Shown here one piece after another: positions 8,980 to 24,819 of a DNA stretch of 34,022 nucleotides. Each line of letters opens with the position of its first letter. Position 1 is the first letter of the stretch. A program made the position numbers and the translations under genes. The notes beneath the pieces were generated by a model. It did no database searches. It had not been told where the DNA came from and saw only the letters and a list, made by a program, of their open reading frames with translations. The DNA comes from an archaeon (GTDB taxonomy: Archaea > Nanobdellota > Nanobdellia > WJKC01), in assembly GCA_014729335.1 (NCBI GenBank), contig WJKC01000057.1, forward strand, positions 1-34,022. The letters run 5' to 3'.

Positions 8980-9246
8980 ATGAGGCTTGAAGAACAAGTG
9001 GTTAAGGAGCGTGAAAGAGCCATTCTAGCGTTTAAGGAGCTAAAAGTCAATGACTTACCGGGCGCTAGGGACTTGTACGAGCTGGCTAAAGCGTACTATG
9101 ACGACGCCCTGCACTTCTATGATAAAGAAAAACTGTTGGAGGCTTTTGAGTTATTCGCCTATGTCTGGGGCTTGCTGGACGCCGGCGCCCGATTAGGCTT
9201 GTTTGACCCCGGTGCTGCGCGGCGACACTACAAGATTGAACAATAA
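8980..9246 (+). CDS. DUF357 family protein
   Basis: 88 aa helical protein; YELAKAYYDDALHFYDKEKLLEAFELFAYVWGLLDAGARLGLF matches the archaeal DUF357 pattern. Confidence 0.85.
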   Translation: MRLEEQVVKERERAILAFKELKVNDLPGARDLYELAKAYYDDALHFYDKEKLLEAFELFAYVWGLLDAGARLGLFDPGAARRHYKIEQ

Positions 9247-9260
9247 CTTTTTAAATCATT
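9241..9260. repeat. Direct repeat A, copy 1 (caataactttttaaatcatt)
   Basis: Exact 20-nt match to 9306-9325; includes the stop codon of the DUF357 gene and a TATA-like CTTTTTAAA. Confidence 0.95.
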
Positions 9261-9305
9261 CAAAGGGGCTGTCGCCCCTCTTGACTCCTCTTCTATTTTT
9301 TTTAT
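9261..9305. repeat. 45-nt hairpin element A between direct repeats (caaaggggctgtcgcccctcttgactcctc...)
   Basis: AGGGGC-TGTC-GCCCCT hairpin followed by CTTGACTCCTCTT; similar to the element at 14019-14062. Confidence 0.8.
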
Positions 9306-9325
9306 CAATAACTTTTTAAATCATT
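9306..9325 (+). promoter_or_regulatory. Direct repeat A, copy 2; TATA/BRE-like promoter of the zinc-ribbon/aEF1B genes
   Basis: CTTTTTAAA lies about 25-35 nt upstream of ATG 9346, the spacing of an archaeal leaderless promoter; exact 20-nt copy of 9241-9260. Confidence 0.65.
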
Positions 9326-9507: not shown

Positions 9508-9771
9508 TTGTCCAACGTTATCATGACCATTAGGGTAATGCCAAAAGGTTTAGAAGTGAATCTTGACAAGTTAAAGAAAAAGATTATTGAAAAATTAAAA
9601 GAAGTTGTTGAAGGAGAAGTTGGCTTTAAAAAACAACCAATCGCTTTCGGCCTTAACGCTCTTGACTTAACACTAATAGTGCCAGAGGACAAGGGGTCAC
9701 TGGTTGAAGAGACATTATCAGGTATAAAGGGCGTCCAGACAGTGAATGTTCAGAGCGTCAGCCTAGTCTAA
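9508..9771 (+). CDS. ef1b: Elongation factor 1-beta (aEF1B)
   Basis: 87 aa, TTG start; VIMTIRVMPKGLEVNLDKLKKKI...PIAFGLNALDLTLIVPEDKG. Confidence 0.93.
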   Translation: MSNVIMTIRVMPKGLEVNLDKLKKKIIEKLKEVVEGEVGFKKQPIAFGLNALDLTLIVPEDKGSLVEETLSGIKGVQTVNVQSVSLV

Positions 9772-13993: not shown

Positions 13994-14018
13994 TAATGTT
14001 ATTGACGCTTTTGGCACC
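13986..14018 (+). repeat. Direct repeat B, copy 1: duplicated trpS 5' end (atggctgataatgttattgacgcttttggcacc)
   Basis: 25-nt exact match (13994-14018 versus 14074-14098), and the start-codon portion RTGRCTGA is also shared allowing for a 3-nt ggg indel. Confidence 0.9.
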
Positions 14019-14062
14019 GAAGGGGCTTTGCCCCTCTCGACACCCCTTAGAGGTGGTGTTAA
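14019..14062. repeat. 44-nt hairpin element B (gaaggggctttgcccctctcgacaccccttagaggtggtgttaa)
   Basis: AGGGGC-TTT-GCCCCT hairpin 14021-14035, followed by a second stem ACACCCCT-tag-AGGTGGTGT; similar to element A. Confidence 0.8.
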
Positions 14063-15136
14063 GTGACTGAGGGTAATGTTATTGACGCTTTTGGCACCAG
14101 CGAGATTCGTGATTATGACAAGTTATTCAGGGAGTTCGGGGTTGAGGACTTCACCAAGCTGGATGCGCCTGACCCATTAACTACCATGCGGCGCGGCATA
14201 GTGTTCGGCCACCGGGATTTGAAGCCGGTGTTAAAAGCCATGAAGAAAGGAGAGAAGTTCGCGGTTATGAGCGGCATCAAGCCGTCTAATTACTTTCATA
14301 TTGGGTCTAAGATGGTGGTTGACGAGATAGTTTATTTTCAGAATCACGGCGGCTTAGTTTATTACACCTTTGCTGATGTTGAGACACTCGCTGATAACGG
14401 CTTATCATTCAAGGAGTCAAGAGAGTACGCCAGGGACAACCTATTAGACTTAGCTGCTCTTGGTCTTGACCTGGATAAGGCTAAGATCTACCTGCAGTCA
14501 GAGGAGCCGACAGTCCTGAAACAAGCTCACGTCTACGCCCGTAACGTTACTAATAACATGCTAGAGGCAATCTACGGCGAGCACCCTGTGAGGATTTACA
14601 TGGCAGTCCTTGTGCAAGTAGCTGACATACTATTACCCCAATTGGAGCACGGACCAATGCCTGTGGTGGTGCCAGTGGGTTTTGACCAGGACCCTCACAT
14701 AAGATTGACGCGCGACATCGCAAGGAAGCATAAGTTAATGCCGCCTGCTTCAACTTATCATAAGTTCATCTGCTCATTACTAGGAGTGGAGAGGAAGATG
14801 AGCAAACGGGAGCCTCAGGGAGTGATATACCTTAACGAGGACCCTAAAAAAGCTCGTAAGAAGATAATGAAGTACGCTTACAGCGGGGGCAAGCCGACTG
14901 TTGAAGAGCACCGGGAAAAAGGCGGCGACCCAAGCGTTGACGTTTCATACCAGTACCTCACTTACTTGATGAGTGATGATGAGAAGTTGAAGAAGATACG
15001 GAGGGATTATGAGAGAGGTGACTTACTCAGCGGCGACTTGAAAAAGATACTGGCAGACCATGTTGAGGAGTTCTTAATAAACCATCAGAAGAAGCGTGAG
15101 AAGGCAGGGAAGAAGGTTGATAAAATACTAGCTTAG
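14063..15136 (+). CDS. trpS: Tryptophanyl-tRNA synthetase, archaeal type
   Basis: 357 aa, GTG start; FHIG (HIGH) motif, KMSKREP (KMSKS) motif, GFDQDPHIRLTRDIA. Confidence 0.95.
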   Translation: MTEGNVIDAFGTSEIRDYDKLFREFGVEDFTKLDAPDPLTTMRRGIVFGHRDLKPVLKAMKKGEKFAVMSGIKPSNYFHIGSKMVVDEIVYFQNHGGLVYYTFADVETLADNGLSFKESREYARDNLLDLAALGLDLDKAKIYLQSEEPTVLKQAHVYARNVTNNMLEAIYGEHPVRIYMAVLVQVADILLPQLEHGPMPVVVPVGFDQDPHIRLTRDIARKHKLMPPASTYHKFICSLLGVERKMSKREPQGVIYLNEDPKKARKKIMKYAYSGGKPTVEEHREKGGDPSVDVSYQYLTYLMSDDEKLKKIRRDYERGDLLSGDLKKILADHVEEFLINHQKKREKAGKKVDKILA

Positions 15137-22999: not shown

Positions 23000-23074
23000 G
23001 GGCCCGTAGCCTAGTCTGGATAGGGCGACAGGCTTCTAACCTGTAGGTCGGGGGTTCAAATCCCCCCGGGCTCA
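23000..23074 (+). tRNA. tRNA-Arg(TCT)
   Basis: GGGCCCG/CGGGCTC acceptor, ACAGG-CTTCTAA-CCTGT anticodon arm, GGGGGTTCAAATCCCCC T-arm, discriminator A. Confidence 0.93.
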
Positions 23075-23090
23075 TACCTGAACTGCGGGG

Positions 23091-23107
23091 GGGGGACTTC
23101 GTCCCCC
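23091..23107. terminator. GC-rich hairpin GGGGGAC-TTC-GTCCCCC followed by TTTTGATTTTC
   Basis: 7-bp stem with 3-nt loop and T-rich tail between tRNA-Arg and nre; resembles the hairpin elements A and B but no flanking direct repeat seen. Confidence 0.5.
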
Positions 23108-23172
23108 TTTTGATTTTCATTCATTATTGATAATGTAAAAGTTCTTTGGATAATCAGCTGTTGATGATAGTG

Positions 23173-24633: not shown

Positions 24634-24757
24634 GGGGTCATAGTCTAGTCTGGCAGGACAACCGGCTCCAGACGATTCTTCGTATTGGAGCGCTGATTCA
24701 ATAATTTGGAGATGACGAAGATACCGGTTAACCGGGGTTCGAATCCCTGTGACCCCA
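24634..24757 (+). tRNA. tRNA-Trp(CCA) with 51-nt intron (about 24672-24722, 1-nt sliding ambiguity)
   Basis: GGGGTCA/TGACCCC acceptor, ACCGG...CCGGT anticodon stem, loop CTCCAG|A with anticodon CCA, T-arm CCGGGGTTCGAATCCCTG; exons sum to 73 nt. Confidence 0.92.
24672..24722 (+). ncRNA. tRNA-Trp intron containing a box C/D-like half-module (D' CTGA 24693-24696, C'-like GAGATGA 24709-24715)
   Basis: Guide 24685-24691 UUGGAGC pairs with exon 24665-24671 GCUCCAG; the fifth nt upstream of CTGA (G24688) pairs with C34. Confidence 0.6.
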
Positions 24758-24771
24758 TTTCACTGGGTGCC
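24746..24771. repeat. Direct repeat C, copy 1 (cctgtgaccccatttcactgggtgcc), includes tRNA-Trp 3' acceptor strand
   Basis: Exact 26-nt match to 24794-24819. Confidence 0.95.
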
Positions 24772-24793
24772 AAGAGTTCTCTTCTTTTGAGCA

Positions 24794-24819
24794 CCTGTGA
24801 CCCCATTTCACTGGGTGCC
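24794..24819. repeat. Direct repeat C, copy 2
   Basis: Exact 26-nt match to 24746-24771, with 22 nt between copies (aagagttctcttcttttgagca). Confidence 0.95.

What the first reader, a model, noticed from the sequence alone, without database searches (positions are those of the whole stretch)
9241..9325. Hairpin element A bounded by a 20-nt direct repeat duplicates a promoter
Exact 20-nt repeats (caataactttttaaatcatt) flank a 45-nt insert that begins with an AGGGGC-TGTC-GCCCCT hairpin and CTTGACTCCTCTT. The repeat covers the DUF357 stop codon and the TATA-like box of the zinc-ribbon/aEF1B genes, so the promoter exists twice. The long direct repeats plus an insert whose sequence is shared with locus B (14019-14062) suggest a mobile or copied mini-element with a long target duplication. 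No transposase is visible. Variable-length long duplications would fit target-primed reverse transcription or a repair-mediated duplication better than a classic IS, but this is speculative.
Basis: partly seen in the sequence, partly recalled or inferred. Interest (0 to 1): 0.72.

Follow-up and report, generated by a model that had tools for sequence, protein, structure and literature searches.

The report
Copied hairpin inserts with long duplications
A roughly 30-letter hairpin has been copied into about 20 places of this small archaeal genome, usually duplicating 18 to 66 letters of the target as it landed, and in a related genome hairpins of the same design also form the start of tRNA introns, which may show how archaeal tRNA introns move.

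Summary
At 9241-9325 an exact 20-nt direct repeat flanks a 45-nt insert that starts with a GC-rich hairpin. The insert is one of 21 copies in this 847-kb archaeal genome. Fourteen of the 21 copies lie between direct repeats of 18-66 nt (exact or decayed), and in 13 of the 14 the left repeat stops exactly at the outermost base pair of the stem (chance about 1e-27). The stem foot covaries around a bulged pyrimidine and is followed by ACWCC. The other end is variable. An empty site exists for locus B in the closest relative, G001, and partly for A.

G001 carries a different hairpin with the same architecture. Three copies sit in non-tRNA sites with 19-39 nt repeats; others form the 5' end of T-loop and anticodon-loop tRNA introns. 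The machinery is unknown. Most likely a hairpin-ended RNA or single-stranded DNA is captured at staggered breaks, a possible trace of how archaeal tRNA introns transpose.

The parts
9241..9260 (+). Left copy of the 20-nt target duplication (DUF357 last codon + stop, TATA-like box)
9261..9283 (+). Hairpin of element A: foot CAA (9261-9263), stem AGGGGC, loop TGTC, GCCCCT, bulged C 9280, foot TTG (9281-9283)
9284..9288 (+). Conserved ACWCC motif directly after the stem (ACTCC here)
9289..9305 (+). Variable T-rich tail of the insert; largely not shared between copies
9306..9325 (+). Right copy of the target duplication, with the TATA-like box in position for the zinc-ribbon gene
8980..9246 (+). 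DUF357 gene whose stop codon lies in the left repeat
   Evidence: PF04010
9346..9504 (+). Zinc-ribbon ORF (52 aa) read from the right-hand promoter copy
   Evidence: ortholog in G001
9508..9771 (+). aEF1B (EF1_GNE)
   Evidence: PF00736
13975..14018 (+). Locus B, left target duplication (exact over 13994-14018; diverged upstream part with the old start codon)
14018..14044 (+). Locus B element: foot CGA, AGGGGC-TTT-GCCCCT, bulged C, TCG, ACACC (first C shared with the repeat)
14051..14098 (+). Locus B, right target duplication, carrying the ribosome-binding site and new GTG start of the tryptophanyl-tRNA synthetase gene
   Evidence: empty site in G001 L264
14063..15136 (+). TrpRS-type class I aminoacyl-tRNA synthetase gene whose start was duplicated by the insertion
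   Evidence: PF00579
24746..24819 (+). Same architecture with another hairpin: 26-nt repeat (last 12 nt of tRNA-Trp + 14 nt) around a 22-nt insert AAGAGTTCTCTTCTTTTGAGCA (24772-24793)

Best explanation
The feature is one copy of a family of very short, hairpin-led mobile inserts. A unit made of a covarying hairpin plus ACWCC, about 27-31 nt, is copied from existing members and inserted at a staggered break. Filling in the 18-66-nt overhangs gives the direct repeats. The first inserted base is the outermost base of the hairpin (shown). The other junction is variable and often carries a T/A-rich filler of 0-28 nt (shown). The long duplication regenerates the stop, promoter or start that the insertion would otherwise break, so gene-junction insertions survive (shown for A and B by sequence; selection is inferred). 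The same design serves as the 5' end of tRNA introns in the sister genus (shown). The element therefore works like a mobile archaeal tRNA intron that also lands outside tRNA genes (inferred). The mobile intermediate is probably a hairpin-ended small RNA or single-stranded DNA, used by host or unidentified enzymes (inferred, not shown).
For: Copies: 11 exact-pattern hits against 0 in the reversed control; 23 CM hits; only single hits in 3 of 284 other genomes of the class. Repeats: 14 of 21, with 13 starting exactly at the stem foot, P about 1e-27. Structure: foot pairs C-G, A-U, G-C, U-A and a conserved bulge; the foot is also paired in 10 of 10 bulged copies from other archaea and bacteria where the search did not constrain it. 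Empty sites: TrpRS start in G001; single promoter before zinc ribbon-aEF1B in G001; tRNA-Ala end in Methanoculleus MH98A versus UBA208. Same architecture with other hairpins: G001 repeats of 39, 36 and 19 nt starting exactly at CAAC; G055 L021; Burarchaeum L112. tRNA link: T-loop and anticodon-loop introns start with the same hairpin; removing 48-62 nt restores tRNA-Ser and three tRNA-Leu calls; 4 of 21 copies lie within 60 nt of a tRNA, a zone of 1.3% of the sampled sequence.
Against: Seven of 21 copies show no repeat. No enzyme was identified. In G000 itself no copy of this hairpin is inside a tRNA as an intron, so the intron link rests on G001 and G055. The right parts of the G001 introns can be explained by splice-motif pairing as well as by a decayed duplication. 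Tails do not trace to flanks of other copies. Some repeat-flanked inserts in G000 have no hairpin at the boundary (L172), so part of the duplication process may be general. The genome is a MAG, 85% complete.
Confidence: 0.62

Rival explanations
1. Retroposition: a small hairpin RNA is inserted by target-primed reverse transcription, like a SINE, giving one fixed end, one variable end and variable target duplications.
For: One junction fixed at the stem base, the other variable and T-rich; variable duplications; structure conserved as if recognised as RNA.
Against: No RVT_1 domain in G000, G001, G034 or G061; only G055 has two. The A/T-rich tail is not one common tail. Up to 15% of G000 is missing.
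Confidence: 0.15
2. Repair or replication template switching: at staggered or collapsed forks the nascent strand copies a hairpin from elsewhere and returns upstream, leaving a templated insert flanked by a duplication. No dedicated machinery.
For: Similar repeat-insert-repeat events with unrelated inserts exist in the same genome; tRNA genes are frequent targets; fillers at one junction.
Against: It does not explain why inserts begin at exactly the stem base in 13 of 14 cases, why structure is conserved across copies, or why sister genera each have their own expanded hairpin. Tails do not match flanks of other copies.
Confidence: 0.25
3. Miniature DNA transposon moved in trans by a transposase that makes long variable duplications, as known for IS1634/IS1549-type elements (own knowledge).
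For: Multi-copy, non-coding, long variable duplications.
Against: No terminal inverted repeats bounding the insert; right end not conserved; Y1 transposases absent. DDE transposases were not searched.
Confidence: 0.12
4. Functional regulatory hairpins (terminators or RNA-processing signals) whose flanking repeats are incidental tandem duplications.
For: Copies lie in gene junctions; structure is conserved; T-rich tails could help termination.
Against: Orientation to neighbouring genes is mixed; repeats abut the hairpin base far beyond chance; the G001 ortholog lacks the hairpin at B.
Confidence: 0.06

Closest known systems
Transposed archaeal tRNA introns (Thermoproteales; Fujishima et al. 2010, as reviewed in PMC4033280 and PMC4090602)
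   Same: Near-identical short introns in many different tRNAs of one genome; here the G001 hairpin sits in T-loop and anticodon-loop introns.
   Different: Here related hairpins also sit outside tRNA genes with 18-66 nt duplications; in G000 the family is wholly outside tRNA coding parts. No insertion footprint was found described for transposed tRNA introns in the papers read.
Intron gain by integrase elements in Caldiarchaeum tRNA-Thr (PMC3293823)
   Same: tRNA fragment duplicated next to the intact tRNA.
   Different: There a 1.9-kb element with a recombinase gene; here 22-60 nt with no gene.
Direct repeats at intron borders (Rogers and Bendich 2025, PMC11782384)
   Same: Proposes that introns, including archaeal ones, enter at breaks and leave direct repeats.
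   Different: Repeats there are 4-30 bp and imperfect and the elements are existing introns; here long, often perfect repeats with empty sites.
REP/REPIN elements with RAYT (Y1) transposases (PMC3116915; mechanism from own knowledge)
   Same: Tiny intergenic hairpins, bulge in stem, many copies.
   Different: No Y1 transposase in G000; REP movement is not known to leave long target duplications (own knowledge).
IS1634/IS1549-type insertion sequences (IS1634 is treated in PMC2266710; long variable duplications from own knowledge)
   Same: Long, variable target duplications.
   Different: Those are kb-size elements with inverted repeats and a transposase.
Eukaryotic introners (own knowledge)
   Same: Short element whose target duplication can supply part of the splice context.
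   Different: DNA transposon-derived and spliceosomal; here archaeal, splice-endonuclease type.

Membership tests
Archaeal tRNA intron | Lies inside a tRNA gene; its removal restores the tRNA | tested here: not met
   Not met for A, B or any G000 copy of this hairpin; met for the G001 family: removal restores tRNA-Ser/Leu
Archaeal tRNA intron | Bulge-helix-bulge splice motif at the junctions | tested here: inconclusive
   Inspection of G001 T-loop introns suggests TTC/GAA and AACC/GGTT pairings; not modelled for G000 copies
SINE-like retroposon (TPRT) | Reverse transcriptase available | tested here: not met
   No PF00078 in G000, G001, G034, G061; genomes incomplete
SINE-like retroposon (TPRT) | Variable-length target duplications and one precise end | tested here: met
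   18-66 nt, left end at stem base
REP/RAYT element | Y1 (RAYT) transposase in the genome | tested here: not met
   No PF01797 in G000
REP/RAYT element | Intergenic short palindrome in many copies | tested here: met
Cas1/casposase-type integration | Cas1 present; constant duplication length | tested here: not met
   No PF01867; duplications 18-66 nt
MITE / IS1634-type DNA transposon | Terminal inverted repeats at both insert ends | tested here: not met
   Right end not conserved, tails differ
MITE / IS1634-type DNA transposon | Related DDE transposase in the genome | not tested
   DDE families were not searched

The most novel reading that the evidence does not exclude
A previously undescribed class of mobile element in archaea: hairpin-led inserts of 27-60 nt that move by a gene-less route, make 18-66-nt target duplications, and are the source of tRNA introns ('archaeal introners'), with each lineage amplifying its own hairpin.
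Probability: 0.38. Interest if true: 0.92.

Novelty: new variant of a known kind. Interest (0 to 1): 0.78.

Why it matters
How archaeal tRNA introns move from gene to gene is stated to be unknown (PMC4090602), and reviewers asked for 'snapshots' of insertion events (PMC4033280). Here the same hairpin design is seen in tRNA introns and, in the same genome, as inserts in non-tRNA sites with target duplications. That gives a footprint (hairpin base = junction, long staggered duplication) that can be searched genome-wide and tested in culture. It also shows how a gene-dense small genome tolerates insertions: the duplication rebuilds the broken stop, promoter or start.

Tried and rejected
Rfam: only tRNAs in the window. 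Reverse transcriptase, Y1 transposase and Cas1 as drivers: none found in G000. Tails as copied flanks of donor sites: no significant sharing except three copies (C6:18441, C62:88, C19:356) that share a GATGCYGGGAGC extension and have no repeats; A and C6:2387 look alike by eye (ACTCC-Y-CTTCT...T8) but were not significant in that test. Terminator or regulator role: gene orientation mixed. Paper search for the sequences themselves gave nothing relevant. Viral contig scans failed three times, the machine gave no answer, so a viral carrier is untested. An automatic 'helix at insert start' test misses copies whose first base is shared with the repeat (B) or that have an internal mismatch (G001), so it understates the pattern.

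Full report
OBSERVATION. The insert at 9261-9305 starts with CAA-AGGGGC-TGTC-GCCCCT-C-TTG followed by ACTCC and a T-rich tail. The single-strand fold is -13.9 kcal/mol with a one-base bulge.

A FAMILY IN THE GENOME. The window is contig 54 of an 846,825-bp, 85%-complete archaeal MAG; its DPANN affiliation is inferred from size and relatives. Pattern AGGGGCTN{1,4}GCCCCT: 11 hits, 0 for the reversed control. A looser pattern added seven sites. A covariance model built from ten copies gives 23 hits, about 21 independent sites. Among 285 genomes of the class (the window's own included), only G001 (same family), G034 and G186 have single hits, so the expansion is lineage-specific.

STRUCTURE. Six foot types occur and nearly all pair: CAA/TTG, CGA/TCG, CGA/TTG (with a G-U), AGA/TCT, GGA/TCC, TGA/TCA; C62:11095 adds GAA/TTC. 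The outermost pair takes all four Watson-Crick forms. The covariation score exceeds all 500 shuffles and all slid controls. Stem length also varies with pairing kept (GGG to GGGGGG; GAGG/CCTC in C38:2608). A bulged C or T separates foot and stem, and ACWCC or AAACC follows. The same bulged hairpin with a paired foot appears in Methanocellales, Micrarchaeota, Burarchaeum, another DPANN archaeon, Methanoculleus and a few bacteria; there the search pattern did not constrain the 5' foot, yet 10 of 10 pair.

FLANKING REPEATS. Fourteen of 21 copies have direct repeats of 18-66 nt, perfect or decayed. In 13 the left repeat ends on the base immediately before the foot, in one 1 nt earlier. Random positions in the same genome reach that repeat score in 3.6% of cases, and with the boundary within 1 nt in 0.5%. 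The right junction is variable: the insert ends right after ACACC (C31:3812) or carries up to about 28 nt of mostly A/T-rich filler. Fillers are largely not shared.

EMPTY SITES. At B the G001 ortholog (72% identity) reads GTGGTGATTACTAATGACTGATAATGTAATTAATCC, MTDNVINPFGAS, without hairpin or duplication. Joining the G000 flanks gives MADNVIDAFGTSEIRDY in frame. The G000 gene now starts from the right copy. At A the zinc ribbon-aEF1B pair in G001 has one promoter and no duplication, though an extra gene lies between DUF357 and the zinc ribbon there, so only the right half is comparable. In Methanoculleus UBA208 an extra element plus a 32-nt duplicate of the tRNA-Ala 3' end is present; MH98A has the single tRNA.

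THE tRNA LINK. G001 has its own family, CAAC-C-CTTTT-loop-AAAAG-C-GTTG-ACGG, with 14 good copies. Three sit between repeats of 39, 36 and 19 nt and start exactly at CAAC. Six others start exactly after GGTTCAAA(A) in the T-loop of tRNA genes. Removing 48-62 nt makes ARAGORN recognise tRNA-Ser(CGA) and tRNA-Leu(AAG, TAG, CAA); two of the six were not recovered by this automatic splice. Two more copies lie at the anticodon-loop intron of tRNA-Pro. One (C5:70270) follows nt 12 of a tRNA whose first 12 nt are duplicated, and G000 C15:1022 has the same placement with a related hairpin and a 17-nt repeat. G055/G061 carry a third hairpin in T-loops (L014, L015) and at a 22-nt repeat site (L021), again starting at the stem base. 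In G000, three tRNAs (Trp in the window, Ala, Ile) have their last 12-13 nt plus 3-14 nt duplicated around short inserts, and 4 of 21 copies lie within 60 nt of a tRNA against 1.3% of sequence (P about 1.5e-4).

MECHANISM. Shown: multi-copy, structured, one precise junction at the stem base, one variable junction, long variable duplication, empty sites, and shared hairpins between tRNA introns and non-tRNA sites in G001 and G055. Inferred: insertion at staggered breaks with overhang fill-in; a hairpin-ended RNA or ssDNA as intermediate; selection favouring insertions whose duplication rebuilds the interrupted gene part. Not found: reverse transcriptase, Y1 transposase, Cas1 in G000. The scan also shows repeat-insert-repeat events without the hairpin, so a general break-repair component is plausible.

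PLACE AMONG KNOWN THINGS. tRNA intron transposition in Thermoproteales is known but its mechanism is stated to be unknown (PMC4090602; PMC4033280). Integrase-driven intron gain (PMC3293823) involves a gene-bearing element. A 2025 survey reports 4-30-bp repeats at intron borders and proposes break-linked insertion (PMC11782384), in line with this finding but without a mobile hairpin outside the genes. I therefore rate the finding a new variant of a known kind (transposing archaeal intron-like elements), with the possibility that it is a class of its own.

LIMITS. MAG data, one close relative, no expression or strain data, viral scan unavailable, DDE transposases not searched. G000's own hairpin is not seen as an intron. 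The covariance model was built from copies in the same set, so the copy count leans on it, but the reversed-pattern control is independent.

Noticed in passing
window 24634-24819: tRNA-Trp with an intron, followed by a 26-nt duplication of its 3' end around a 22-nt insert beginning AAGAG-TT-CTCTT; tRNA-Ala in L159 (2417-2569) has the same 12-13 nt + 13-14 nt geometry.
   Followed up: partly
window 23000-23110: tRNA-Arg is followed about 14 nt downstream by another GC hairpin (GGGGGGGACTTCGTCCCCC); repeats not examined.
   Followed up: no
L158:12673-12857 and L166:1-102: Tandem arrays of element plus repeat (88-bp and 51-bp units) sit at contig ends in G000 and probably break the assembly; the real arrays may be longer.
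   Followed up: partly
L168:197-318 (G000 contig 1): A 24-nt repeat flanks a 74-nt insert with a different stem (CTTTCTCTTT..AAAGAGAAAG) but the same AGA/C-TCT foot and ACTCC motif, so the element grammar may be wider than the GGGGC stem.
   Followed up: partly
L053-L155 (MAG JAUYDN01, Dehalococcoidia): More than 60 copies of a longer repeat containing TTGAGAGGGGC..GCCCCTCTCAA CTCCC, often at contig ends; no flanking duplications seen.
   Followed up: partly
L052:6300-6560 (Selenomonadaceae): About 36-nt imperfect direct repeats flank two hairpins, the first (GTACTTTCTTTG..CAAAGAAAGTAC) starting at the repeat end: the architecture may also exist in bacteria.
   Followed up: partly
L144:540-860 (Ktedonobacter racemifer): Three tandem 91-bp units each containing an AGAGGGGC..GCCCCTCTT hairpin.
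   Followed up: no
L238:13719-14585 (G010): Regular 28-29-nt repeats with 38-40-nt spacers, looks like a CRISPR array.
   Followed up: no
L159:1909-2079 (G000): tRNA-Lys with a 96-nt anticodon-loop intron rich in hairpins.
   Followed up: no
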